Below are positions 15,852-47,800 of a stretch of DNA of 64,000 nt, one piece after another; position 1 is the first letter of the stretch; each line of letters begins with the position of its first letter. This DNA comes from Ancylostoma caninum (lineage: Eukaryota; Nematoda; Chromadorea; Rhabditida; Ancylostomatidae). The stretch lies in assembly GCA_037903475.1 (NCBI GenBank), contig JBAJFG010000638.1:1-64000 (forward strand), in the 5' to 3' direction. Below the pieces are notes generated by a model that saw only the letters and a program-made list of their open reading frames with translations, did not search any database and was not told the DNA's origin. Both the position numbers and the translations under genes were made by a program.

Positions 15852-16735
15852 ACCGAGTCCACTGTTGCTGTAGGAGTGCGCCGGCGTCCAAAAGTGGGGA
15901 AACACCTGGAGTCGGGTCCAACGGTGTGATAAGGGTGCGCCGGCGTCCAAAAGTGGGGAAACGCCTGGAGTCGGGTCCAACGGTGTGATAAGGGTGCGCC
16001 GGCGTCCAAAAGTGAGGAAACGCCCGGAGTCGGGTCCAACGGTGTGATAAGGGTGCGCCGGCGTCCAAAAGTGGGGAACGCCTGGAGTCGGGTCCAACGT
16101 GTGATAAGGGTGCGCCGGCGTCCAAAGTGGGGAAACGCCTGGAGTCGGGTCCAACGGTGTGATAAGGGTGCGCCGGCGTCCAAAAGTGGGGAAACGCCTG
16201 GAGTCGGGTCCAACGGTGTGATAAGGGTGCGCCGGCGTCCAAAAGTGGGGAAACGCCTGGAGTCGGATCCAACGGTGTGATAAGGGTGCGCCGGCGTCCA
16301 AAAGTGGGGAAACGCCTGGAGTCGGGTCCAACGGTGTGATAAGGGTGCGCCGGCGTCCAAAAGTGGGAAACGCCTGGAGTCGGGTCCAACGGTGTGATAA
16401 GGGTGCGCCGGCGTCCAAAAGTGGGGAAACGCCTGGAGTCGGGTCCAACTGTGTGATAAGGGTGCGCCGGCGTCCAAAAGTGGGGAAACGCCTGGAGTCG
16501 GGTCCAACGGTGTGATAGGGGTGCGCCGGCGTCCAAAAGTGGGGAAACGCCTGGAGTCGGGTCCAACGGTGTGATAAGGGTGCGCCGGCGTCCAAAAGTG
16601 GGGAAACGCCTGGAGTCGGGTCCAACGGTGTGATAGGGGTGCGCCGGCGTCCAAAAGTGGGGAAACGCCTGGAGTCGGGTCCAACGGTGTGATAAGGGTG
16701 CGCCGGCGTCCAAAAGTGGGGAAACGCCTGGAGTC
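15852..16735. repeat. 59-bp minisatellite, about 15 copies
   Basis: The word GTGCGCCGGCGTCC recurs about every 59 bases from 15876 to 16696, fifteen times. The unit also contains AGTGGGGAAACGCC, TGGAGTCGGGTCCAAC and GGTGTGATAAG. Most copies differ by 0-2 bases, and several have one-base deletions in the A or G runs. The left-most copy is the most diverged. Because 59 is not a multiple of three and the minus strand has no stop in any frame, three overlapping minus-strand frames of 278-294 codons run through it. They are an arithmetic effect of the repeat and not evidence of genes. Confidence 0.97.
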
Positions 16736-31999: not shown

Positions 32000-34930
32000 A
32001 ATACTTAGTGAGCTCATCTCTTTGCAGTCGGTGCTCATCGTTGTCTAGTCGAAATGAGTTGAGTGTGCAGGTCAGGGGAGGTGTTTGGTGGGCTAGATAG
32101 CAAATATTGCAAATTCAAGAAAATTGATCCACTTCTGGGCCTCTGAAGACGACTTGTTGTGGAAACATCGGCGAATAAAAGTGTCTTATAACAACCTGTA
32201 TGGCAGAAAAAAAAAACAATGAAGACACTAACCAGGGAAAGATATTAGCTGGGTCTGTGATGGCATGTGCACTAATAAGTAGTTTCTGACTCTGCACAGT
32301 TGCTAATTTCGAACATTTAGCCGATCAAAATTAATTTTCTAAGGAAGCGGTAGATAGACTCTTTTACTTTTCAGCACGTATACTCTGTCCGTCCGCTTCA
32401 TCTATGCACTGCACATGACCCATGGAAGCCAAAGATTCAGGGCACTTTCTAATAGTTCTGCAATAGAGCCTGAGAGCACAAAATCATGTGCTGAGGAATA
32501 ATTTTCTACGCAGCAGCTGCGCCACGTAAATTTGAGTCTCTATGCGTGTTTGTAAACAAATAAGTATGCAAAACGTGAATATGCGTTTCAGCTTCAGGAC
32601 CGCATACATTTCCACATGATGAGCATGATGTGAGCTAACATATTAAACTACTGGATGTTTTGTAATATTTTGCAGTCAAGAAAATAGTAATTCTAGGACT
32701 GCCGCTCATATAAATAGCCTAATCAGCCTCGAAACGTCAACTTACATGGGAATCTCATAATTTATGAGGATTCCAGTAAGATTTGTTAAGGTTTGCTCGA
32801 TGAAGGCGGTAGCTTGTAGGGTATTTCAACATGGGATGTCTTTGAAGACGATATTATTCCATTTTTGACGAGTATTTTCTCCACCAAATTTTTTATCAGT
32901 GTTAATTTTTCTGAAAGTGGTTTTTCCCCAATTCAAGTACTTTTTTTATTCACATTAACCTCAAAAGTGCCGCTTTTTCTTCACTCAATTGCTTTCATGA
33001 TGTCCGCTATTGGCGCAGGGCTAACAAGCCAGAGGTGTTGCTAAAATAGACCTCTTGACCCACAAAAGTCTTGCATAACACTACCCAAGAAGACATTCTG
33101 AAAGAAGAAACGCTTGCGAAATTGCAAGCTCATTTCTTTCAAGCATATCGGAAGGGACTGTCCTAGAGAGCAGCGGTTTCGGCTTACATAGAAGCCTATT
33201 CTGTAGAGGATCGCAGTTGGTCGCAAAAATAACACACATGTTCGTATAGAGGAAGGTTACTGCTTGCCACTACACGTACTTTCTTAGCGGAATCTCGTGG
33301 AACTTTTTTTTAGATTTATCCGAAAACACAAATAGGCCATGTGCTTAATCGCTCATCTCTCAGACACGTTTGGATTTCTTTCCCATATCTGAGAAATGTG
33401 GTTACTAGAAAACATGAAAGCTAGTTCCAAGAGCTATTGAAATAATCCTGAATAGAAAATTCAGCCGACAACATAGATGAGAGAGACAACTCATAAAGTG
33501 CTCAACTGTATTACGTAGGCGGTGTTGTATAGAAATGGTATCTTTTCGTTATCTAATTACGTCCCGCCAGGTGATCGGTCGCCAGAAACTACTTGTGTCG
33601 TATGCGCGCACTATCGGCGAATATTTTGGTGCAGTTATATGGTAGGTCGAGAAATACATTTTGAGCTCCTAATTTGCGAAATTGCACACTGTGCGATGAT
33701 TTCAAATTTGTACCGCGTTTCTGCTGCGGTGTTCCCTGTAAAGAGTTGAAGCGATTTTTCCCTTCTCTGGTTTGTAGCACGACGTTTATGGTTTGATCCG
33801 AGCCAGAGCGCCGCTCTGACTCGGACCCGTGTGTCACGTTCGGGCTAGGTAAACTCTAGAAAATCACTGTCATCCGCGAAGCTGCGCTTCGCGGATGACA
33901 GTGATTTTCTGCGAAACTGCATAGCTCCTAAACGTTTGAAGGTTAACTCTTATTATGTTTAATATAAAGAGCTTCTACATGGTCCTTTGTATGAGTAGCA
34001 ACACATATCCTCACGTGGTCAAGTAGTTTTCATTTGTCATAGCGCTGAATGTCCAAATTGCTATGGTTCGGGCACAGTTAGCTTTCAACAGGAGAAAACT
34101 GGGTAAACGTTCTATTCCTATTTTGTAAGCACAATATTAAGCCCATGGAGTGCACCATTTGTTCCCCTGACCGTTAATTTCTAATTGCTATTACTACTTA
34201 ATGCTTTAGAAGGAGTGCAGCGAAAATTTCCGTACAACTGTTGTATTTGGATGATTCGCGGCTCTGATTGCGAAATCACACTCGCTTCATCAGTGGTTCT
34301 CCCATTCTACTTTAAAGATCCAAGATATTCCGTTTTCATTACAAATTAGATGTCCTAACTGAAGATTTCCATGTTGTACATATACATTTACCATGGGCGT
34401 GTCATTGGGCGTGTCAATTTTCGCAATTGAGCCCGTGGCGGCGGGCAAAAGAATAGGGGCAAGGAGAGTGGATCAATGACAGCGTTACCTGTCATCCCCG
34501 GCGCGGCGATGGGGGGGGGGGTCTGCGCTTCATAAAGAGTAAGATGTCTAAAAATGTTAGCTGGAGAGATTCCAGAGTGGAAGGCAAAGTATACAGTAGG
34601 CGAAGGGGAGGCAAAAAGCAATGTAATGTGGAGAAATCCCAATTTTCGTATGAAACAGTGTTGCACAGAGGACGATTCGAGCACGATCAGCATGTGGGCC
34701 GTGGTGCAACGGTATGTAAGTGTCTCGCATTTCAGGTGGATGGACAAGGGTTCGCATCCTACTGCGGGCGGTGGTTCTACATTTTCTCATTAAATGTTGT
34801 GTTTCTTTGAAAGACATTTCATGTACTGCCACGTCATCTTCTTCGCAGGAGTTTTAGAGCTTTAAAAGCAGTTTGTGCGATCTTTTTGTCGCTAAATTTT
34901 CACAGCACTGGAGGTAATATCCGCATATGG
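32000..34930. other. no gene recognised except a short perfect hairpin (33858-33910)
   Basis: The open stretches are short, A/T-rich and without motifs. A 34388-34747 minus frame opposes 34544-34832 plus frames, and none has splice support. Confidence 0.35.
33858..33910. repeat. perfect 25-bp inverted repeat with a 3-base loop
   Basis: Positions 33858-33882 and 33886-33910 are exact reverse complements (arm AGAAAATCACTGTC... ending CGCGAAGC), with TGC between them. It could be a cruciform, a small RNA hairpin or the core of a decayed foldback element. Confidence 0.95.
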
Positions 34931-34941
34931 GTTCTTCTACT

Positions 34942-35341
34942 TGTAAAGGAGAGCTAGTAGGGCGTGAAAGGATGAGAGAAGGGCTAGAGAGGAAGGCTAA
35001 GCGTGAGAGTTAGAGGCATGAGTCACTTGATTTCTTGTCGCTAAGGAAGATATTTTCAGGGGGTGGCGATGCGACGGATCAACGAGAAGAAGCCCCGAAG
35101 GCTGGAGCCTGGTGCGGCCGCCTGACGCCTAGCCCTCGATGCCAGCCTATCTCCAACCTGAGCCTACCCACGTGGAGAAGTGCCCGTTGCCGCCCACCTC
35201 GATCAACCTACCTGCCGCCCATAATCTTCCTCACATACTTCATGCCAATAATAAAAGCATTTTATTCAGTGATTGTATTTCCCAATAAACTGATTTATTT
35301 ATTCTGTGTGTGCATCGGCACCTTCCACGGCGCTACGCTCA
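34942..35341 (+). repeat. 5' long terminal repeat
   Basis: It begins TGTAAAGGAGAGC and ends CGCTACGCTCA. It contains AATAATAAAAG and CCAATAAACTG, likely polyadenylation signals near the R/U5 border. It matches the 3' LTR along its whole length. Confidence 0.93.
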
Positions 35342-35342
35342 C

Positions 35343-35360
35343 TGGTAGCAGCGAGTGGTT
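35343..35360 (+). promoter_or_regulatory. tRNA primer-binding site
   Basis: TGGTAGCAGCGAGTGGTT begins with the complement of a tRNA CCA end and lies one base after the LTR, the standard place for the minus-strand primer. The tRNA species is not assigned. Confidence 0.75.
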
Positions 35361-35361
35361 C

Positions 35362-36640
35362 CACCGCTCGCTTGCTACGATTTGTAGAGGGCCTCAGGTG
35401 AGATTTTGTTCTGTTGAGCAGAAACATGACTGGCCACCTTGTTTTTCGTTTGTCACAGATGGTCTAATTTAGCAGCTAGCAGCGCAGGCGATTCTCCAAA
35501 TGAGTAGTACCGTAGTTATCGATTTTTTATGCCTGTTGCGAATTCAGAGCCATGGCGGCGGGACGGCAAGCGTTTTGCCGAACACGTGGCTCGCGAAGAA
35601 GTCGTGAAGGACACTTTTCGAAGTCGCAGCTGCACAGGAAAACCTCATCGACTTTCTTTTGTGATTCTGCTGTGCTCAAAGGGCATCCTTTTGGGGTTCA
35701 GCTGCACTCAGAGAATCGACTACGGTACCTTTCCTTGCATTCGCTCGAGCATACGGTTTTCTTAAGGACGTCCCCGGGGACCTGTTGGTCAGAAACTAGT
35801 GCGACACATGAAATGAAGTGACTTGCGGTATTTTGCAAGATGTCGTCCTCGAATAAAAAGATATGAGTCGCGCAGAGTTGAGTAGCAGTAAGGCGCCAGA
35901 ATGAAAGTTTTAGTAGCAATGGAAACAGTGACTGAGCCGTGTTTCGCCCCCGCCAAAAGAGTGTACGAGGACCAGATGCTAGCGACTGACTAATCCACCT
36001 AGGTAAGAAGATATGCATGATAAGAGGCCGAGGAGTAGCAGTGTACCTTGATTCTCGATAAAGCATTCTTGACGTGCAGTCGTCGGTGACACGTTCTTCT
36101 AGGGACATTTGCGAGCACATTTTGAGCTCTTCCTTAAACTCCGGCCCTCATTCCGTCTGCGAGTTTCGACCTGGCTGCTATGCCCACTTTATATTGCACC
36201 TCAGCATGACCATTATAACAGAATTCTTCGAATGCTGACACTGTCGCCGTATCATTCTTCGCCAAATCCAAAAAAGGCCGTGCTCAACCCTTGTAAGCCG
36301 TGCAGCTGCGCCGAGTTTTTGAGAGTTTCTTTCAACAAGAAAGCTTTCTAGGGCCCTGATCCCGCCCACATCAGGTACGTATAGAGAGAGCCGCGTGAAG
36401 GGTCACTTACTCATTTGTGATATCTCATCGTGACCATTAGGGACTAGCGTTATGCCCCCCCCCCGCCTTCCATCCTTTGGCTTCCAACACCTCATACGTT
36501 TAGCCGGTTACATTGCACTATGTCTTCGTTGCCCTACCAATTTGGCACCATTACCCAGGCGACGTCGTCTGCCCATAATTATTCGGTTGTGCGAAAAGTT
36601 CTTCGTCGTTAATTTCGATCCGTTGCAGATTACCAAGGGG
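35362..36640. other. leader region of the LTR element, no recognised gene
   Basis: This 1.3-kb stretch between the primer-binding site and Gag has overlapping open frames on both strands (for example 35698-36120 on -), without motifs. It could be 5' leader or captured sequence. Confidence 0.4.
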
Positions 36641-36677
36641 TCCCGCAAAGAGATCCAAGACGCGACCCAGCGAAGCC

Positions 36678-37400
36678 ATGGCTGTTGCCGCGACACCAGT
36701 GTCTACGCCCGATCAAGTTACCGCTCCGCTGGTTGGAGCCCTCGCCAACCTCGACGACGCCTCAACGGTCTATGGAAAGGAGGCAAAGGAGCTCCGAGAT
36801 GCCGCCACCGAGGCGCTCGTGAACGTATGGCGTGACGCCCGCCAATCGACATCACAGCTAGCCCAGCAGTTCAACCAAGGTAATTCTAACCTGCTTTCTG
36901 GGTTGAATGATTCTTTTGCCGCTGTGAGCTCACGCATAGAGGCGTTACCCGTGGTAGCGTCATGCAGTCCTGATGGGCAGATTCCGAAAGTTCAAACTTT
37001 TTCCGGTTCTGGTGAGAACGTGGCGCAATTTTCAATTTGGTTGCGTCGCCTCGAGGACATCATTAGGATGCGCGGCGTACCCATGAGTTCTGAGTAAAAG
37101 GCTAACTTCTTAATAGGCCACCTTGATGGGGTAGCGCGCGAAAAGATTGAGGAGCTATCGGAGGATGACAAAAAAAGTTTCGAGGCGATAGTAGGCCATT
37201 TGCGTGGATTCTTTGAAAGCCCGCAACAGCGCTACGTGGCTCGGCAGACTCTAGCAGCCTGTAGGCAGGAACCGGGTGAATCCAGTACGATTTTTGCGAA
37301 CCGTTTACTTAACCTAGTCCGAGCCGCTACAGCAGGACAAGACCCCCTCACTCAGAAGGAGAGAGTCCTCGAAGAGTTTGTTGCTCGACTGCGAAGCGAC
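36678..37400 (+). pseudogene. Gag-like protein of the LTR element (one in-frame stop, truncated)
   Basis: The reading frame starts with ATG at 36678. An alanine- and glutamine-rich N-terminal helix region is followed by the Ty3/Gypsy-type Gag core: PKVQTFSGSGENVAQFSIWL, then RLEDIIRMRG, and after the break GHLDGVAREKIEEL, LRGFFESP and CRQEPGESSTIFANRL. A TAA at 37095-37097 interrupts the frame once, and homology continues in the same frame. It ends around 37400 without a zinc knuckle and runs directly into helicase sequence in the +1 frame. Gag would form the particle shell and bind the RNA; this copy is inactive as it stands. The Gypsy assignment is by overall pattern only. Confidence 0.75.
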
Positions 37401-38704
37401 AATAGCGGCTCGGCAGGCTCTTTCGTCCCGCGAAACTGTGGTAGTTACTGCGTCTACCAATGCGGCTGTTGCCCAATTCGCTGAAACACTTCTATCTGTC
37501 GAGGAATTCGCAGAGTTTGTCATCCTGCGCTATGTTTCCGACACCGCCATGGCCGAGGAGCGATCCGCCCTTCCAGTGGACCTCAATGAGGTACTCAAAT
37601 CTCTTGGCGATGATTTCGCCGCCCGTCTCAGTGTTGCCGACAGAACCACCTGTGCCCGTTTTCGAGCTGGGCGGTTGCGCTATGAACAGTTCGCACAGCA
37701 GGAAAATCTGGAGCTGTCCGACCACGACAGAGAGGAGTTCATCCTGGCGGAGAAAGATGTCTCGGAGACACTGGAGGACATGATTTCGATCATGTTCGCC
37801 GTGCATCACAACTGCATCTTTGCTAAATGCCTCCGATGAAAAAGGAATATTCGCAGGCCACTGGGATAACTTCTCCCTACTCATTTGTGATGAGGCATCC
37901 CAGGTGCCAGAGCCCGTGTTTGTGGCCATCGCGAACCGCTTGCCACAGTTGCGGCACGTGTATATCGGAGATATCCACCAATTAGAACCTCATGTGCGCT
38001 GCCCCCGCAATTCCAATCCTGCAAAATTCGGGGCCCGGAGCGTGATTGATCTCCTAGTTGCCGCGCGTGCAGTCCCCACTGCACCTCTTGTAACAACATT
38101 TCGGGCTCATCCTCTCCTGAATGGACTCCCGAACACGGTTGCCTACGATGGAACCCTCATCAGTGGCGCAATCCCCGAGCAAAGGAGCATGTTGTTAAAT
38201 CTGATGATGTTCCCCGATGGAGAGACCCCATTCCTTTTCCTGGATGTGGCCGGAAATTCTGAAAGGGCGACGAGCCGCTCGCACTTCAATGAGGCGGAAG
38301 CGACAGTGTGCACATCAATTATCGATCGATTGATGGGGAAAGGTGTCTCCCCCGCCTCCATTTGCATCATCTCCTTCTACAAGGAACAGCTGCGACGGCT
38401 CGAGGACTACGCTGCGAGAGTCGGTGTAGAGTTGGGGACTGTAGACTCCGTCCAAGGCCGTGAGAAAGACATCGTCATTCTGCTAACGACGCGCACGGAC
38501 TTCAACCCGCTGACTGCAGAGTTCCTCAATGACCCCAGGAGGATGAACGTTGCCCTCACTCGTTGTCGACACGGACAATTTGTCCTCGGCCACGTGGAGT
38601 CTCTGCGGCGTGTCAACTTCTGGAACGTCGTCCTTACCTGGGCTGCTGCCCGCAATGCCATTGTTCCTGCAGCCGATTTGGGCAGTTATCTCAGCACCGT
38701 TTAA
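37401..38704 (+). pseudogene. UPF1-like superfamily-1 helicase, truncated and frameshifted, 3' ORF of the LTR element
   Basis: The order of motifs is clear: Ia (VVVTASTNAAV) at about 37438, II (LLICDEASQ) at about 37875, III (YIGDIHQLEP), a TTFRAHPLLNGLPN block with YDGTLISG, IV-like CIISFYKEQL, V (TVDSVQGREKDIVIL) and VI (RRMNVALTRCRHGQFVLG). This is the UPF1/SMUBP2/MOV10-like SF1B core. Walker A (GxxGTGKT) is absent because the homology begins immediately after it, at the junction with Gag. The first part is in frame 1 (to about 37795) and the rest in frame 2 (37820-38704), so there is one frameshift. The stop lies 46 bases before the polypurine tract, so the helicase occupies the 3' ORF position of the element. 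Its role, if any, in the element's cycle is unknown. Confidence 0.85.
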
Positions 38705-38750
38705 GGGTAGGTGTTTTCAGTCACTTAGTCCGAGGACGGACTTTTATTTA

Positions 38751-38761
38751 AGTGGGGGAGG
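38751..38761 (+). promoter_or_regulatory. polypurine tract of the LTR element
   Basis: AGTGGGGGAGG immediately precedes the TG that opens the 3' LTR, the expected plus-strand primer position. Confidence 0.8.
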
Positions 38762-39159
38762 TGTAAAGGGAAGCTAGTAGGGCGTGAAAGGATGAGCGAG
38801 AGAGCACTAGAGAGAAAGGCTAAGCGTGAGAGTTAGAGGCATGAGTCACTTGACTCCTTGTCGCTGAGGACGATACTTTCAGGGCGTGGCGATGCGACGG
38901 GTCAACGAGGAGAAGCCCCGAAGGCTGGAGCCCTGTGCGGCCGCCTGACGCCCAGCCCCTGATGCCAGCCGATCTCCAACCTGAGCCTATCCACCTGAAC
39001 CGCTCGTCGCCGCCCCCTCGATCAACCTACCTGCCGCCCATAACCTTCCTCCCCTTATCCTGCAAATAATAAAAGTATTTTATTCACTGATTGCATTTAC
39101 CAATAAACTGGTTTATCTATTCTGTGTGTGCATCGGCACCTTCCGCGGCGCTACGCTCA
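38762..39159 (+). repeat. 3' long terminal repeat
   Basis: Direct repeat of 34942-35341 with scattered substitutions and small indels. It ends in the same CGCTACGCTCAC before unique sequence. Confidence 0.93.
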
Positions 39160-39813
39160 CTGGACGACCAACCTTGTCGGAGCACCCAAGCCCCTGTAGT
39201 CGTTGAGCCCCGACCTCTGTAGGGACTGCAGAGCCGCCTCGATGAGGTCGAAGTCATCGAATAGGTTTTCCATCAAGGAGGGTGCTCTTTACCTGGGCAG
39301 TGGTGGTAATTGCAGAACACAGAGAGTCATCGTGAACGGAGTTATGCAATCAGTCGGTTCGATTTTAGTCGAAAACGGCGGTCTCTTTATAAAGAGGACA
39401 CAGCGAACATTTGCGAACGTCCTCGAATCTTCCATATCTGTGCGTGCGCAAACAATTGCAAGCACCACTCTTTTCTGGGACGTTCTGGATCGTCGTAGAT
39501 ATTGTCTTTCGCCTCCAGAAGGTGTCCGACCTTCTTCTTGCCATCCTGAGCGTACTTCTTACTCCACAAGATTTAGGGATATCTTCTTTAATTCACTATG
39601 AACTCTTCTCGGCCGCGTATTCTCAACGCTATAAAGAACTTTCAGTTGGATCTTGTTAGGAGTGGCGTGTTACAAGCTAGGGGGGTAACTTTGGTTCAAA
39701 ACAAACTACGCGTTTAACAAGGTTTACATTTAATTGTGTATTTGAATTGTTCTGTATTTTGGCATACTGTAGCTTGCCTTCGACGCAGCCGAAGAAGTGG
39801 CGGGATTTGACGA

Positions 39814-39820
39814 CTATAAA
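39814..39820 (+). promoter_or_regulatory. TATA-box-like site
   Basis: TATAAAA in the context GACGACTATAAAAGCAGTGC, followed by transcribed-looking C/T-rich sequence. No supported gene starts nearby; it could belong to an unrecognised LTR. Confidence 0.25.
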
Positions 39821-40464
39821 AGCAGTGCCGTGGATGAGACCAGAGGCCAGTTAGCTCCAGAGTGGATCGCTGCGGATACGCCGATCCTGTGATCTCTTTC
39901 CTTGCATTTTTAGTTCTGTGTATCATGGATTGCATTCTTTTATCCCAATCTGTCTCTCACTTAGTCTAGTAAAAGGTGTACTTACTTGTGCATATGGTTG
40001 TTTGTAAGGGTCGTAAAAGCTGTGTTCCTCTTCTCGTTGCTCCTAGAACGAACGGTTGAAACTAAAAACCACAACACTTGCCAAACCATCTTCTTTTCAT
40101 TTTCGGGGCCACCAAGTTCACAGTCTTTTGCTGAAGCTCTAATCCTCCTTCCTTGTTCCAGACCGGATTCCTTTAACACAATTCGGAAGGAAACTTCATC
40201 TAACCATTCAAAACTCCGCGGTTGGGGATTTTTGGCGGCTTAGATCGAGTTGCCTCAACAGTGGCACTAATTTTGAAAAAATATCGGACAATATACTGCT
40301 GCTTCCTTTCGCCAGCCTATAATTCCATCTTCTTACATGCAAGGGTTTTGAACATGATATAGAGGAATCTCTATTTTTGTATATCTTCAAGTGTTGTACT
40401 TGTTGTTCTTCAAATGTTATAACTCTTCTGTTATCTCAAGAATCCATCTCAATCTCGTGCAGTA

Positions 40465-41141
40465 TTTACTCAGACAAACCCTCGCTGGGCGCGCGCGACA
40501 ATCTCGCTGGCCGCGCAGGTAAGGCCCCGGCAGAAGCGAGTTTGTCGCGCGCCCAGCGACCGAGATAGGCGCGCGCGCCCAGCAAACTTGTAGCGCGCGC
40601 CTTGCGAGATCGGTGCGCGCATCCAGCGAGATCGGCGCGCGCGCCCAGCGACGATGTCACAACCGGTCAATACCGGATGATGCTCAGGTGTTGAACGTTC
40701 AGCAACAGGGGTCCACCACATAGGTGTACTGATGGTGCATGACCATCTTTATAAAAATGGCCGCTATGACGACGGATTATTGGATGAGGCTAGCGGTTGA
40801 AAATTATTGCCTTCACGCCTTGAAAAACCAAACCTGTCCGCCGCCCTGACCAGCGGAGTCCCACCGCCGTTGCTTCGTATTTCTTGCTGGTGAAGATGTG
40901 TTCTCGCGCGCGCTCTGGCGCGCGCCGAGCAAGCGTCTTTTGTCGTCTGCGTCCTTCGAAAATCGTCCCTCGTCTGCTCCGCGCCTAGCGAGATCCTACT
41001 CCGGCAGAAGCGAGCGATATTACTGACCTGCGTCTTCGAAACTTTACTATTTCCTTCTGCTCCGGGCGAAGCGATGCGGGGCTCGCTTTTCGTGGAGACC
41101 TCAAACAGGCGCGCGCGACAAGCGAGGGTTTGTCTGAGTAA
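40465..41141. mobile_element. 677-bp CpG-rich TIR element
   Basis: The ends at about 40465-40498 and 41108-41141 are inverted: ACTCAGACAAACCCTCGCT followed by a GCGCGCGCG run, with only a few differences. The inside is extremely CpG-rich, with repeated CGCGCGCCCAGCGA words in both orientations. No ORF carries a transposase motif, so it is non-autonomous. Confidence 0.75.
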
Positions 41142-41163
41142 GGACTGAAATGCCGATAGCTGT

Positions 41164-41402
41164 ATGGTCTATTAGCTCACAGAAGGCGCCTGATCTGACA
41201 TTGTCCGCAATTACGACTTTGCCTGCAGAATGCGTCTGAAAGGATATTTTAGCGGATGGCAGTGGGGAAACATAAGAATGGAAGAAACCACACCATATGG
41301 ATATCAAAAAAGTGCAAAAAATAGACCGGTTGGCCGAAAAATGGTGAAGTCGTAATTGCAGACAATGTCAGATCGGGCGCCCTCTGTGAGCTAATAGACT
41401 AT
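41164..41402. mobile_element. MITE family B, copy 1
   Basis: The terminal inverted repeats of about 50 bp start GTCTATTAGCTCACAGA and include GGCGCC. The interior contains GGATATTTTAGCGGATGGCAG and ATCAAAAAAGTGCAAAAAA, matching the copy at 57975-58206 along its whole length. It lies 22 bases right of the CpG-rich TIR element. Confidence 0.85.
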
Positions 41403-41487
41403 ATGTTCAGTACTTTGTCCTTGTTCTCTTTTCCTCTAACTGAATGTTTCATTAGTATTTTTCATTAGTATGTAGTATGAACATTTT

Positions 41488-41509
41488 GGTTTAATTACCC
41501 AAGTTTGAG
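41488..41509 (+). other. exact 22-nt SL1 spliced-leader sequence embedded in the genome
   Basis: The stretch GGTTTAATTACCCAAGTTTG plus the following AG is identical to the nematode SL1 leader. It is not an SL1 RNA gene, because what follows (GTTCATTAAATGG) is not the SL RNA body (which continues GTAAAC...) and there is no Sm site. It is best read as the 5' end of a reverse-transcribed trans-spliced RNA. Confidence 0.9.
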
Positions 41510-41522
41510 GTTCATTAAATGG

Positions 41523-41593
41523 TGCATCGGCCAGGAATCGAACCCGAGCCGCCCGCGTGGCAGGCGAACATTCTACCACCGAATCACCGATGC
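41523..41593 (-). tRNA. tRNA-Gly (anticodon GCC), probably a retroposed copy
   Basis: A 71-nt cloverleaf folds on the minus strand. The acceptor stem is GCATCGG/CCGATGC with discriminator A, the D arm is ATTC...GAAT, the anticodon loop is CTGCCAC with anticodon GCC, and the T arm is TCGGG-TTCGATT-CCTGG with two G-U pairs. The B box GGTTCGATTCC is intact. Two features argue against an ordinary gene: the three bases after the discriminator (41520-41522) encode CCA, which is normally added after transcription, and the tRNA lies antisense between an SL1 leader and an A-tract. It could still be transcribed from its internal promoters. No T-run terminator lies directly after it on the minus strand. 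Confidence 0.85.
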
Positions 41594-42055
41594 CTCAAAA
41601 AAAAAGATCATTTCGTCCGTTCTATTGTATTTCTTCATCTAATGAAGCTTCTTCATAACCGTTCCAGAACAAAACGGACATCGCTGCAGCAATATTACCG
41701 TTACCTTCCCAAGCTGGTATTTTTTTTGTTGGCTGCTACTAGAAGGCCAATTCCTGCAAGAAATACACGTCTATTTTTGAAAAAAAAAAAGTCAGTGAGA
41801 ATTAATCGAACCCGACATCCATACTCGGCGTCATTCTGATCCACTTTTCCTTCCTACAACGGCGCCTTCTCCGAACCGCTAGTTTCGTGGCTATGTACCG
41901 CATATGTCTGCAGCACGGTTTCCCCACAATAACCACTGGCTCAGTCACGTTTTTATATGTAGGAGGGTATCCTAGCAGGTATCTTCGCAGGTTCTTTAAG
42001 TTCCTATTCGCTCTGACTCGCTAAAATCGGAGTAGCACCCATCAGGACGTGTTTA

Positions 42056-43813
42056 GAGGCACTGTCCCACCTCAGAATCGTTTTCGAGATTTTCGCATGA
42101 AAAGAATCTCCAGCAGCCACTGATGACAATGCTATATGCGACTCCATGCAGAACTGCCGGAAAAACCCTCAATTATTAAGAAGCCTGTGAGCGGAGCCAA
42201 ATTACAATGTTCTCACCTCATGTATTTCTTTGCTCGTCACACAAGGAGCGTAGTTTCTATTTTGATAGGGAGCGGATGAGGAACTCTCACGAAGATTAGA
42301 AATTTGCCCGGAAGTGCGCTCCCATGGGTGAAATATTCAGATAGTGCCTTGGCCCCATCCTCGGAGCCAAGGCACGTCTGAACATTTCACCAATGGGAGA
42401 CAAAGACATCCCACACTCAGGCACTTTCAGCGGACGGCGCGCGCACCCAATACAGGACGGCCCGCGTAAGGGTTGAGAATTCGCCAGGACTTGGGTGCGC
42501 GGGCCGTCCGCTGCTGCTTACTAGCGGACCAGCCGCGTGCCTTCAACGGACCAGCCGCGCGCCTTTCTGAGAACCGGTGAATAGCTCCGTCCTCTACCTT
42601 TTCTTTAACAGTCTAAACGCTTCATATCACAAATGGGCAAAATGTTAACATCACATATAATAAATGGTTAATTTATTTTACCATTATCTTAGTACAAACA
42701 AAGCAAATATAGCTTCAAATGACAGGAGTCTACGTGACAACGTCTATACAGCTTGAAATAATATCAGACAAGAATGAACGAATAAGTAGGAGTCTACAAT
42801 ACATCAGTAACTGTGGCGTCACGAGTATTGCACATATCCTCTATATATCGATATTCATATACTATACACCCTTCTTGCCGCCTGCACTGCCTGCTTTATT
42901 AGGTGTCGTATAGATCATTCGTATCTCTGAAAATCCAAACACTCTTTAATAACAGGGACGTTGGGAACCACAGAAACGAACTCATTGTGAAATGTTATGA
43001 ACTTCAAAGCCTTCTTCTCTGTCACCCATAGATGCAGCCGTAGTGCGTGTTCCCTTCAAAAGTATGATATGTGGTATCTATAGCTGTTCACTAGATGAAT
43101 TAATAAAAATGACAGGTAAGCTAAGAATTATAAAGAAGTAACCAACTGACGATGTGCTCTTTCTGAACTTCTCGGCCTCACTGTACCATTGCTTGATTCG
43201 GCTGCTCAGCTTGTGAAGCAGCGCCAGACGCAACTTCTTCTGTCACTTCGCCTTCTCCGACAATGGTCTGAGGTCTGAGGGGCAGTAACGCACTTCAAGT
43301 GATCCCAAATTTTGAAAAATGTAAAACAAGAGCATTCTTCTATGTATACGAAAACGGGAGACGATTGAAAACCAAAGCGTGTGTGACTTCACCCCACACC
43401 AAGACACTCAAAGCAAACGAAAAATAGGTAGAATAGATACGACGTTCAGTCAGCACTGGGTTCGCGGCAATTTGAATTCAAATGAATAAAATGCTGTAAT
43501 ATTTCGTCGCGGTTGTTTCACAGTTCACGCCAAAATTAAGGCGCGCGGATGGTCCGTGTTCAGAATGGGTCCGCGGCTGGTCCGCTGCGAAGCTCCGCCC
43601 ACATTTTGGGTCCGCGGCCCGTCCGCAACCAAGGATTTGGCACGCGGACCGTCCGCTGAAAGTGCCTGAGCAGGCTCCTCAAAAATTGGTGCACGAAAAC
43701 GGGTTTTTCGGCAGTTTTGCAGAGAATCACATAAACCATTGTGATCAGATGTACCTGGAGACTCCTTTACGTCAAAATCTCAAAAACGATCCTGAAGTAG
43801 GACTGCGCTTTTG
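42056..43813. mobile_element. 1.76-kb non-autonomous TIR element
   Basis: The left terminal region (CCTCAGAATCGTTTTCGAGA, 42071-42090) is inverted at 43780-43800. Further inward, AGCGGACGGCGCGCG (left) pairs with the right-hand CGCGGACCGTCCGCT. The inverted repeats are about 500 bp in total, with a G/C-rich inner zone full of CGGACC/GGTCCG words. A second hairpin (42322-42410) sits in the left arm. No transposase is encoded. Confidence 0.75.
42322..42410. repeat. hairpin inside the left arm of the 42056-43813 element
   Basis: CTCCCATGGGTGAAATATTC...GTGCCTTGGC is inverted as GCCAAGGCAC...GAACATTTCACCAATGGGAG around a 12-base loop, with a few mismatches. Confidence 0.8.
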
Positions 43814-43899
43814 AACCTGTACACATTCTGACGGAACCGTCTCGCAGTGCTCATTAAATGCAAAGCAGTGCCACTGTCTTTTTTTTCACAAGAAGCCAA

Positions 43900-44800
43900 T
43901 ATTATGCCTCAGATAATTCGGAAATTTTTATAATTTAAAGGTCGTGAGGTGGCGTTCATCACAATGATGTGCATAACAAGTGAAGAGAAATCATTTTTGA
44001 GTCTCTCCTTTTGGAGAGAATTTGAGATGCGCACTGAGAAATTTGTCACCTGAAACCAGTCACATGCTATTGATCTCGTGCCAACAACTGGAAACAAACG
44101 TACTTTTATTAAACAAGCATATAAACAACAATTATGCAAAAATTATCAAGACCATGGGATGTGATCTGGTGATCAGAACGGTAGTACGGTAGCGCAGCTG
44201 TAAATTTTAAACATACACCTACTATAACAAGTACATGGACTAGGCAGTACGATATTGAACTAGGAGCATTTCCGAAAAATATATGCGCTTAGTTGAGGGT
44301 GAGGAGAGAGGCGCGAGGGAGAAACCGGCCCAATGTGAGATAACGAGGCGTACTATAGTCAGCTAACCAATCAATAATGTGTCATGTCCCCGTGTACAGA
44401 AAAATCAATTCTGTTTTATTCATACCAATGGATATATGCGCGTCAAACAACGTCTAGAAGTCCTGTGGAGCTTCGTACTAAAAAATAGTGTAGAGGTGAG
44501 CACAAGAGTCTGTGCACCGATCGATCAACTATTGATTGATTAATCATTTATGAGACATGCGTTGCACGCTCAATAAAACTGGCCCGTATAAAAAGAGCAC
44601 TCGGTTAAATGGTCAAGTGAAAATACAATGTGCACAAACGCTGGATGTTGTACAGTATACAAAGTGTCCCAAAAATCACGCATCGATCGATAATTTAATG
44701 GCGAGCGCTCTTCATTCTGAATACTCGCACATCCTGTTTATGGTTCGCGACGTCGTCACAGGTATCGTAACCAATCATTTTTGGCTACCGTAGTCAGGAT
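43900..44800. other. no gene recognised; possible mariner-type end at about 44654
   Basis: TACAAAGTGTCCCAAAAATC (44657-44676) resembles a mariner terminal repeat, but no inverted partner is visible nearby. This A/T-rich stretch lies just downstream of the nucleoredoxin stop codon and should hold its 3' UTR. Confidence 0.3.
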
Positions 44801-44818
44801 TACAGTAATCACTGGCGG

Positions 44819-47800
44819 TCAGACGGCTTTCACTTCTTCTTTGCCACCACCCATAGAGTTTTGAGATGGTGAGTTGCTTATGAGCGCCTGTTCGATGATG
44901 GCGCTTGGAATGCCTCCTACAGTTTTCGACTGAAATAGGAGTACAATAACCTAAACGAATCTAATGAGTAAAAAAAAAACAGTGAAAATTCTAGGGTTAT
45001 ACGACATACCGCGCTTTGAGCAGCAGCAGGAAGAGGAGTCCACTGAAGTCGTCCCGCCCTATACTCGGTGACAAACTCGTCCAGCACCGCCTCCGACACA
45101 TCTGGCCGATCACAGACACAAAGCTGACCTGCCAAACCGTCCACGATGCAGATCAGTGGAAGTTCGACATCTCCCAGTCCAAGAATTGACTCCAGAATCT
45201 AAAATAGGATGATGTAGCGCTAGTAGCGAGCGAGGAGGCATTGGCTTACATGGTCGCAGATCGAATCCTCGCCAGTGTAGAGTAACTGAAGTGGATCTGC
45301 TTGGGGTGGGATTGGCAGGTCCGACCCCGTTGAACTAGAAGAACACTAATACAGTTGAGAGAAAGAGAAGTTAGGGAAATGAAGCAACTCACCTGCACTC
45401 CTCGCTACTAGCCGATTTCGACAACCCATTGCCTGGCTCAGCATTTTCGTCTGCCTTCTTATCCATCTCTTCAAGCCTACGGTCCTCAATTTTCATCCTC
45501 TCGTCAAATAATCGTCTTGACAATGCATCCATAACAGACAGAGAGAATTGGATGTCATCCGGTGAGCCTTCTGCAAATCGATAAATGTGCAACTCTGCGA
45601 TCAGATTTGAATGGTTTCCAAGAGGATGGCTTACCTGTGAATAGTATTAGGGACGGTTCATCCCGTAGGCGGCACACAGTGTACTCGTTGAGCTCATAAA
45701 GGGGGCGTGGTCCCCATGGGAAATATCGCCCAGCTGGATCTTCAAGCAGGGATGATCTTCCATGATTAGTGATAACTCGTCCAGTTTGGTCCAGGAGAAT
45801 TAATGAAGGGATTCCTGGAAAGCAGGGTAAAAGGCAGTGTGTCACCTCGGTTCAGGGTGGTAAGGTGTGGTGTGTCACGTGGGACACGCGCATTTGAACG
45901 CGCGTGGGTCCCGCGCTCAACCGCTCAAGCTTTTGGTCATACGCGGTATGAATTTTTCCTCGGCCACATAATACTCCGAATATGCGCAATTTCGAATATC
46001 TGAGACCGATTCTTTTCTCCTGTGGTCGTGAAGTGTTTCCAAATGTCTGTCGTAAATTCCCCCTATCTACCCAGTATGTGGGTAGAACTCCTGAATATGT
46101 AATAGTTTATCACTATGTAGGAGTTCGCTAGTTACGACTGTTTCACAAAAATAAAACTGAAAAGAGCGTGCTCACCCGGTTGGGCACGCGGTCCAACGCG
46201 TCGCACCTGGCGTGAAAACCGGTTGAGCACATTGTCATGAATGTGCTAATAGCTAAAATTACTTTTGCTTCTCAGAAATATGTTCTCTTCATAGAAATTT
46301 CACCATATTTTTTGCGAAAAAAGCCCTAAGTTCAGATTTTTTGCCCAAGTTACGGTTAAATAAGTTTATGAGGAGGAAAAATACACATGAAAGACTCACC
46401 ACTGATATTGTAAACCCTCGTCAGAGCCAATGTCTTCGCTGGATCATAGCTGAACGCCAGCCAGGGCATCTAAATGAAACATAGATTCCTGACATCAGAA
46501 ACCAAAAACCAAAAAAAAAGAAAGAAAAAGAAACAGACCTAACTCTTACCTGTTCAACAAAATGGTCAAACGCCTCTTGAGATCTATCCGATGAGCAGAA
46601 AACTATCTCCAAAGAGGTCCCGTTCTTCTTCATTTGTTCATAGACGGGTGTTAGCTGCTTTACCCACTGCCTGCACGGTGGACACTGGAATAACGACTGT
46701 TAAAACATATAAAAACACAGAAAAGCAAAAATCATGGCAATGTGAACAGTTGAAGGAATTCATAATGAAAATAAAACAAGAACCCCTGAATCAAAAATTT
46801 AATATTTCGAAAACCAACCCACTGCGCTCCAAACAACAGTCCTCGAACGGTAGTTTCTATCGCCGAGAAGTCCGATGTCTCGACTGCTCCATTCACTCGT
46901 TTTATAACATTGCCTTTAAGGACTTCTACGGCTGCTGGAGGCCACCTAGAAAGAAAAACGGGGGGTAGACAGCATGTTTTGATGTCATTTCTTGATGCGA
47001 AAACCGATCGCCGCTCATTTTCTTCTCCATCACAAGATATGGTGGGTTCAACAGTTGGTCATAAAGAAGTGTCCTCGTACCATATTTACTCAGAAAATTA
47101 GAAAAAAAAACTAGCAAACTAGCAACTCACCAGGGAAACGAAGCTCCATTCACATCATCTGCAAGTAGCCGTCGTCCCTCCGTGGTAACCACACTCCTCG
47201 ACGCGGTATCGACGACTATCAGCGATGGCGGGAACTCAAATCCCAGCGCTCGTAGTAGCCGACTCTGAGAAAAAACCACTCAAATCACATATCTGGGGTG
47301 TGGGAACTACTTGACAACCTACCTTAGTAGCCAGCAGCTGCGGAGCGTAGACGTACCACCCGGGTTGCGCCAACTGCGACGAGCCTCCTTCGTCGGAATT
47401 GGACCGATAATCAGTATCTATGAGGACAACTGATATCAACGTTGGGTCACCGCTAACGCTTCCTTCCTTCTTCTTCTTCTTTTTCATGCTGAAGAACCGT
47501 CGAATGCGAGCAGGAGAGCTTAAAAAAAAGTTCTGAGAATGTATTGAAAGGTCATCAGCGGAGGGATGGGATTGGCGCGACCTTTGCAAATGAAATTGAG
47601 AAAAAGTCGGTTTGAAAAGAAAGACCTTCGGAAACTCAAACCATCACAGAAGAAGCAATGAAATTCCAGAAAAAAGTTCATCTCATCGCCTTTCATTGCT
47701 TGGACTGCCATTAGCCGAATGAACGTGAATATCAATCTTGGTGTATTGCTCAACGAACTACTCTTCTATTACTACACTACTCACTATGTCAAGATCCAAA

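What the first reader, a model, noticed from the sequence alone, without database searches (positions are those of the whole stretch)
34942..39159. LTR retrotransposon that carries a UPF1-like helicase as its 3' ORF
Seen: paired LTRs, primer site, Gag core, then SF1B helicase motifs Ia to VI ending 46 bases before the polypurine tract. Known: nematode Gypsy and BEL elements end in pol (protease, RT, RNase H, integrase) or an env-like gene, and UPF1/MOV10-type helicases are host RNA-decay and RNAi factors that restrain retrotransposons. Inference: an LTR family captured a host helicase and placed it under element control, which could counteract or exploit host RNA surveillance. This copy is dead, but complete relatives may exist.
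Basis: partly seen in the sequence, partly recalled or inferred. Interest (0 to 1): 0.85.

Follow-up and report, generated by a model that had tools for sequence, protein, structure and literature searches.

The report
Jumping gene that carries RNA helicase
In this hookworm-like genome a retrovirus-like jumping gene carries, besides its usual genes, a large enzyme related to those that cells use to unwind and check RNA; the copy in the window is a broken remnant, but fuller relatives sit elsewhere in the same genome and in related parasitic worms.

Summary
Window 34942-39161 has LTRs, primer site, Gag, a UPF1-type helicase fragment starting just after motif I, and a polypurine tract. The copy lacks pol: gag meets helicase at a 7-bp microhomology. 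Its LTRs (88% alike) are not sisters: its right part matches a copy on contig C113 with 99.75%-identical LTRs, which exactly lacks the window's 1.23-kb GT-AG leader intron. Of 11 helicase loci read on both sides, 9 show LTR-gag-pol-helicase-LTR (13.4-17.7 kb). The helicase is a third ORF in the env position (1,261-1,413 codons open in 8 of 9). Ten gene models from six strongylid genera join its product to gag or pol. It is under purifying selection (one measurable distant pair, w about 0.1) and diverges with pol (r 0.94). A splice acceptor precedes its ATG by about 50 nt in 5 of 6 copies tested. The fold is a UPF1-like core; the tree rejects a clade with UPF1 and puts unnamed Caenorhabditis helicases nearest. 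Verdict: a strongylid Ty3/gypsy lineage with a helicase ORF3, a new variant of a known kind. Function (perhaps shielding element RNA from host surveillance) and host source are inferred, not shown.

The parts
34942..35343 (+). 5' LTR (TGTAA...TCACT); from a different copy than the 3' LTR
   Evidence: 88% to the 3' LTR; for 34942-36626 no other match of 90% or more was listed except two rows of 49 bases; no matching target-site duplication with the 3' side
35343..35358 (+). primer-binding site TGGTAGCAGCGAGTGG
   Evidence: same GGTAGCAGCGAGTG after the 5' LTR in 8 of 9 complete-structure relatives
35398..36628 (+). spliceosomal intron in the leader (CAG|GTGAGA...TTGCAG|ATTACC)
   Evidence: exactly absent in the C113 copy; read by eye, a CAG|GT at the corresponding place in C80, C588, C160, C227 and C13b and AAG|GT in C9, that is 6 of 9
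36629..37401 (+). gag fragment with one in-frame stop
   Evidence: PF03732 E 0.0012, below cut-off; 49-67% identity to gag of gene models P0033, P0105 and P0233
37395..37401 (+). gag/helicase deletion junction, 7-bp microhomology AGCGACA
   Evidence: AGCGACA occurs at the gag site of C80 and C588 and at the helicase site of C594, not at the helicase site of C80 or C588
37402..38704 (+). helicase ORF3 fragment, motifs Ia-VI, one frameshift, no motif I
   Evidence: blastx to the C80 helicase, 79% and 86% identity; AAA_12 E 2.7e-39
38750..38761 (+). polypurine tract AAGTGGGGGAGG
   Evidence: G-rich purine tract immediately before the 3' LTR in all 9 complete-structure relatives
38762..39161 (+). 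3' LTR
   Evidence: identical to an LTR on C113 and at least 96% to copies on C594, C613, C285, C621 and C164
39162..39165 (+). GGAC, the target-site duplication of the C113 insertion; here on the 3' side only
   Evidence: C113 has GGAC on both sides; the window's 5' flank ends TACT

Best explanation
The window holds a broken, composite, pol-less derivative of a Ty3/gypsy LTR retrotransposon lineage of strongylid nematodes (13.4-15.0 kb in 8 of 9 complete structures, 17.7 kb in one). The lineage has gag (with protease), pol (RT-RNase H-integrase) and, in the env position, a long ORF3 (1,261-1,413 codons stop to stop in 8 of 9): a lineage-specific N-terminal module followed by a UPF1-type superfamily 1 helicase. 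SHOWN: the anatomy, its repetition between LTRs, its spread in strongylids, conserved motifs, co-divergence with pol and, on one measurable distant pair, strong purifying selection. INFERRED, well supported: ORF3 is made from a spliced subgenomic RNA (leader donor to an acceptor about 50 nt before its ATG), as env or Cer1 CERV are. INFERRED, weakly supported: the helicase acts on the element's own RNA, stripping proteins or structure so that unspliced genomic RNA escapes decay and small-RNA amplification (about 0.4; help in reverse transcription about 0.25; decoy of a host RNAi helicase about 0.2; other 0.15). The window/C113 derivative probably arose by a reverse-transcriptase template switch at 7 bp that removed pol, and moved with proteins supplied in trans.
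Against: No transcript or protein evidence. Not every derivative keeps the helicase: C613 (LTRs 100% alike) has gag and a pol piece but no helicase match; 5.2 kb downstream of a related pol copy (C16) shows none. The C633 helicase is only 22-27% identical to the others and lacks the -50 acceptor. 4 of 13 copies show no target duplication. Several genome copies are near-identical (C80/C588, C227/C13b) and some may be allelic contigs, so copy counts are not insertion counts. Gene models can fuse neighbours wrongly.
Confidence: 0.85

Rival explanations
1. Chance local capture: a host helicase piece happens to lie between two unrelated LTRs.
For: The window's LTRs are only 88% alike and have no shared target duplication; the left half does not match the C113 locus.
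Against: The same helicase position is found in 9 LTR-gag-pol-helicase-LTR loci and in gene models of six genera; the C113 copy of the same junction has near-identical LTRs and GGAC on both sides.
Confidence: 0.02
2. The helicase is a replication factor: it helps reverse transcription, strand transfer or packaging inside the particle, rather than countering host surveillance.
For: Conserved ATPase motifs and selection; SF1 helicases of this kind act on RNA and DNA (established). The fold also matches SEN1, DNA2 and nidovirus helicases.
Against: Most Ty3/gypsy elements replicate without one (established); ORF3 is a separate ORF with its own predicted acceptor, so it is not obviously packaged with Pol.
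Confidence: 0.25
3. Decoy: the protein mimics a host RNAi helicase of the ERI-6/7-MOV10 kind and poisons or diverts that pathway.
For: Nearest sampled relatives are two Caenorhabditis helicases (100/100); a segment before motif I is shared by 17 of 24 element and 2 of 2 Caenorhabditis proteins and 0 of 77 others, motif chosen after seeing it. ERI-6/7 is homologous to MOV10/Armitage/SDE3 and acts in siRNA pathways (PMC3213143, passages).
Against: That the Caenorhabditis protein is ERI-6/7 is a guess, not tested; both branches are long; profile comparison aligned only the core and about 80 residues before motif I, not the N-module; by plain search score UPF1 proteins (up to 108 bits) are nearly as close as P0132 (111 bits); a pure decoy need not keep its catalytic motifs, yet they are kept.
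Confidence: 0.2
4. The LTR mismatch and missing duplication in the window are an assembly join at a repeat, not a biological recombination.
For: C113 ends inside the shared stretch (contig length 279,931); C113 has the clean insertion structure.
Against: No long match of 90% or more to the window's left part was listed elsewhere in the assembly; C621 also has one LTR at 97% and one at 86%.
Confidence: 0.5

Closest known systems
LTR elements with an extra ORF3: bdelloid rotifer Vesta and Juno (DEDDy exonuclease, GDSL esterase; PMC5408684, passages seen)
   Same: gag-pol plus a lineage-specific enzyme ORF3 after pol; that paper says ORF3s in LTR retrotransposons are typically separate transcriptional units expressed from spliced messages
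   Different: A different enzyme; here a UPF1-type helicase with its own N-terminal module, spread over strongylid nematodes
Insect retrotransposons with SF1 helicases: TRAS and Jockey LINEs, and fusions to LTR-element proteins in Diptera and Hymenoptera (PMC5563155 abstract and passages; PMC6338049 part 1 of 4)
   Same: Retroelement carrying a superfamily 1 RNA helicase; the same idea of silencing suppression is proposed there
   Different: Those helicases are of plus-strand RNA virus type; this one matches AAA_11/AAA_12 and the UPF1 core, and is a separate ORF3
Cer1 CERV of C. elegans (PMC10309623, passages seen)
   Same: Nematode gypsy element, large 3' ORF in the env position made from a spliced mRNA; CERV serves genomic RNA export
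   Different: CERV is 517 aa; the word helicase does not occur in that main text
UPF1 (SMG-2), MOV10/SDE3, ERI-6/7 helicases
   Same: SF1 core fold and motifs; UPF1 is the top structural match, IGHMBP2 tied by VIA Z
   Different: UPF1's CH domain was not matched; clade with UPF1 rejected; the N-terminal part up to motif I was found only in strongylid proteins (29 of 29 hits, query included; limited sensitivity)
Orchid Ty3/gypsy elements with an m6A demethylase domain (PMC9289625, search listing only)
   Same: Gypsy lineage that gained an RNA-acting enzyme domain
   Different: Other enzyme, other host kingdom

Membership tests
Ty3/gypsy (Metaviridae) LTR retrotransposon | LTRs, primer-binding site and polypurine tract | tested here: met
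   Window and 9 complete-structure relatives; the usual primer site is missing in C13a
Ty3/gypsy (Metaviridae) LTR retrotransposon | pol order RT - RNase H - integrase | tested here: met
   P0114: RVT_1 106-266, RNase H 329-458, H2C2 599-658, rve 691-769 (rve below cut-off). The window copy itself has no pol
Ty3/gypsy (Metaviridae) LTR retrotransposon | 4-5 bp target-site duplication | tested here: met
   4 bp in 9 of 13 relatives; not met for the window copy
UPF1 / SMG-2 | UPF1-type helicase core fold | tested here: met
   IGHMBP2 is tied by VIA Z
UPF1 / SMG-2 | Groups with UPF1 in a helicase tree | tested here: not met
   p-AU 2.4e-5 against the clade, 37 rows; long branches
UPF1 / SMG-2 | N-terminal CH zinc domain | tested here: inconclusive
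   Alignments to CH-containing UPF1 structures start at model residues 284-296; the N-module folded alone gave no match at E 0.001 or better
ERI-6/7 / MOV10 kind | Orthology to the named proteins | not tested
   No named ERI-6/7 or MOV10 sequence was used in any call; P0132/P0133 are unnamed Caenorhabditis proteins
Virus-derived SF1H of insect retroelements | Viral_helicase1 (PF01443) as main domain | tested here: inconclusive
   In 5 proteins (4 element, 1 Caenorhabditis) AAA_12 scores 126-139 bits, Viral_helicase1 14-32, cut-off 21; no insect retroelement sequence was in the tree

The most novel reading that the evidence does not exclude
The helicase carried by these LTR elements and a Caenorhabditis helicase (P0132/P0133, possibly ERI-6/7, an RNAi factor reported to silence LTR elements) descend from one gene apart from UPF1: either the elements took a host silencing helicase, or a nematode host domesticated the element's helicase against the elements.
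Probability: 0.2. Interest if true: 0.92.

Novelty: new variant of a known kind. Interest (0 to 1): 0.75.

Why it matters
An LTR lineage of parasitic nematodes has kept its own UPF1-type RNA helicase over a time in which silent sites saturated. That makes a question testable that is usually only argued: does a retroelement carry a helicase to get its RNA past host surveillance? Nematode Argonaute and small-RNA pathways act on LTR elements (PMC13195028 title, start of abstract and passages; PMC12852730 passages), and MOV10 restricts retrotransposons in human cells (PMC3475670, start of abstract in the listing). It also bears on annotation: the Haemonchus contortus genome paper lists a set of helicase domains among expanded gene groups (PMC4054779, passage). 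Many close hits here are Haemonchus proteins named only hypothetical or AAA_12, so part of that expansion may be retroelement ORFs; I did not match the paper's gene list.

Tried and rejected
Splicing as the cause of the gag/helicase junction: rejected, the junction is a 7-bp microhomology and no GT follows the break on the gag side and no AG precedes it on the helicase side in C80 or C588. Selective retention of the helicase in pol-less derivatives: not supported, C613 lost it. UPF1 as direct parent: clade rejected, with the caveat of long branches and no MOV10 in the tree. N-module as cold-shock domains: top Foldseek hits are Unr cold-shock domains at E 3e-3, none at 0.001 or better, so no claim. 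Viral contigs: 12 stretches matched a pattern, none a relative; the tool says records near the window's genome may be left out. Virus library: top structural hit an SDE3-like helicase of Sylvanvirus, E 1.9e-28, not followed. Lenient Pfam scan of 5 proteins, which would have shown other helicase-linked domains: nothing named for MOV10 was listed. Host UPF1 in the same genome: not completed. Novelty searches: (one search read AAA_12 as aaa12). In these listings and the passages read I saw no report of a UPF1-type helicase in an LTR element; subscription papers and Repbase were not searched. In one search my Walker A pattern missed nearly all element proteins; the count was redone.
Full report
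Observation. LTRs 34942-35343 and 38762-39161 are 88% identical. The primer site follows the 5' LTR and a G-rich polypurine tract precedes the 3' LTR. Between them lie a gag fragment (PF03732 E 0.0012, below cut-off; 49-67% identity to gag in gene models P0033, P0105 and P0233) and a helicase fragment (AAA_12 E 2.7e-39; human UPF1 best PDB sequence, E 2e-30). The helicase starts a few residues after motif I of a relative and carries one frameshift.

What the window copy is. The same genome (G000, 348 Mb, 638 contigs, species not given) holds a second copy on contig C113. Its two LTRs are 99.75% identical, GGAC stands on both sides, and the gag/helicase stretch is 99.8% identical to the window's. 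The window from about 36626 to 44971 equals the C113 locus, flank included, at 99.4-99.9%, to the end of that contig; left of it only the LTR/leader and short weak matches align. For the window's 5' LTR plus intron the long matches elsewhere are 69-89% identical. So the window's LTRs are not sisters, and 88% says nothing about age. Whether this is recombination or an assembly join is open. The 1,231 bases 35398-36628 begin CAG|GTGAGA and end TTGCAG, and are exactly missing in C113: a leader intron, so the C113 copy went through spliced RNA. The gag/helicase junction carries AGCGACA, found at the gag site of C80 and C588 and at the helicase site of C594, as expected for template switching.

The complete structure. 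AAA_12, a broad family that also rings in 8 of 14 control genomes, has 96 matches in this genome, some in open frames of up to 1,413 aa (a list limited to the best candidates). I fetched both sides of 11 helicase loci. Nine read LTR-gag-pol-helicase-LTR, 13.4-17.7 kb, LTRs 96.9-100% identical. One (C594) is LTR-gag-helicase-LTR without pol, and one (C79) gave no LTR pair, its contig ending just before gag. Pol was confirmed by tblastn with P0114 in 8 of the 9; C437 rests on reading its ORFs, and its frames are broken. A CCHC knuckle was found in 7 of 7 gag ORFs tested, C79 included. 4-bp target duplications were found in 9 of 13 LTR-bounded copies; C13a, C9, C588 and C285 showed none. LTRs at 96% identity or more to the window's 3' LTR occur on C113, C594, C613, C285, C621 and C164; the first five have two LTRs and are 3.0-6.6 kb long. 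C613 has no helicase match. Some copies show no stop in gag, pol or helicase within the pieces read; none is singled out here.

Spread. Ten gene models join the ORF3 product to gag or pol in six genera (P0033, P0089, P0105, P0111, P0114, P0117, P0129, P0228, P0230, P0233; P0230 has part of the N-module only). Gene models can fuse neighbours wrongly, but repeated fusions in the same order support adjacency. The N-terminal part up to motif I was found only in strongylid proteins, 29 of 29 hits, the query included (the search needs shared words and similar length).

Selection and co-inheritance. Motif patterns I, II and VI matched in 8 of 9 ORF3s, III and V in 7 of 9; C633 has variants such as AYGAGKT, DEASMVPEA and GDSKQL. 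For C9-C160, dS 2.19 (near saturation), dN 0.216, ratio 0.10; two near-identical pairs carry few changes and the other pairs are silent-saturated. Identity in helicase and pol correlates across 7 copies, r 0.94 (2 of 5040 permutations as high); without C633 r 0.84 (4 of 720) (identities taken).

Expression. The first in-frame ATG of ORF3 lies within 70 codons of the frame's start in 8 of 9 (C79: 164). A TTNCAG starts 49-56 nt before it in 5 of 6 copies tested; mononucleotide shuffles gave a mean of 0.59, and 0 of 5000 reached 5. C79 was left out because its first ATG lies far inside, C588 and C13b because they repeat C80 and C227; C633 lacks the site. With the leader donor, this predicts a spliced subgenomic helicase mRNA, like Cer1 CERV (PMC10309623, passages). 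SL trans-splicing to the same acceptor is an alternative.

Mechanism. Most likely the helicase acts on element RNA, clearing proteins or structure and so keeping unspliced genomic RNA from decay or small-RNA amplification. This rests on the enzyme class, the env-position ORF with its own acceptor, and established roles of host UPF1/MOV10-type helicases. No call tests it.

Known ground. Extra ORFs in LTR elements and SF1 helicases in retroelements are both in print (PMC5408684, PMC5563155, PMC6338049; parts seen as stated). A UPF1-type helicase as ORF3 of a gypsy lineage was not seen in searches.

Noticed in passing
window 15876-16735: Tandem repeat, 59-bp unit, 14.6 copies, 97% matches, which creates long open frames on the minus strand.
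   Followed up: no
window 33858-33910: Perfect 25-bp inverted repeat with a 3-nt loop.
   Followed up: no
window 40482-40651: GC-rich direct repeats spaced 22 bases and inverted repeats, downstream of the element.
   Followed up: no
L036 (G000:C613:175500-182700, minus): Derivative with LTRs 100% alike and 4-bp duplication GCAG; gag plus a pol N-terminal piece beside the 3' LTR, no helicase match.
   Followed up: partly
G000:C621:3468111-3472170: Another LTR pair with one LTR 97% and one 86% to the window's 3' LTR, a mismatch like the window's.
   Followed up: no
L025 (G000:C633): Deeply divergent subfamily (helicase 22-27%, pol 39-47% identity to the others) whose helicase is the best-scored own-genome match to the Caenorhabditis protein P0132.
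   Followed up: partly
L038 (G000:C16:1381800-1387000): 5.2 kb downstream of a pol copy 47% identical to P0114 shows no helicase match and no open frame of 200 aa on that strand.
   Followed up: no
Haemonchus contortus genome paper PMC4054779: It lists helicase domains among expanded gene groups; part may be ORF3 of this element family. Not matched gene by gene.
   Followed up: no
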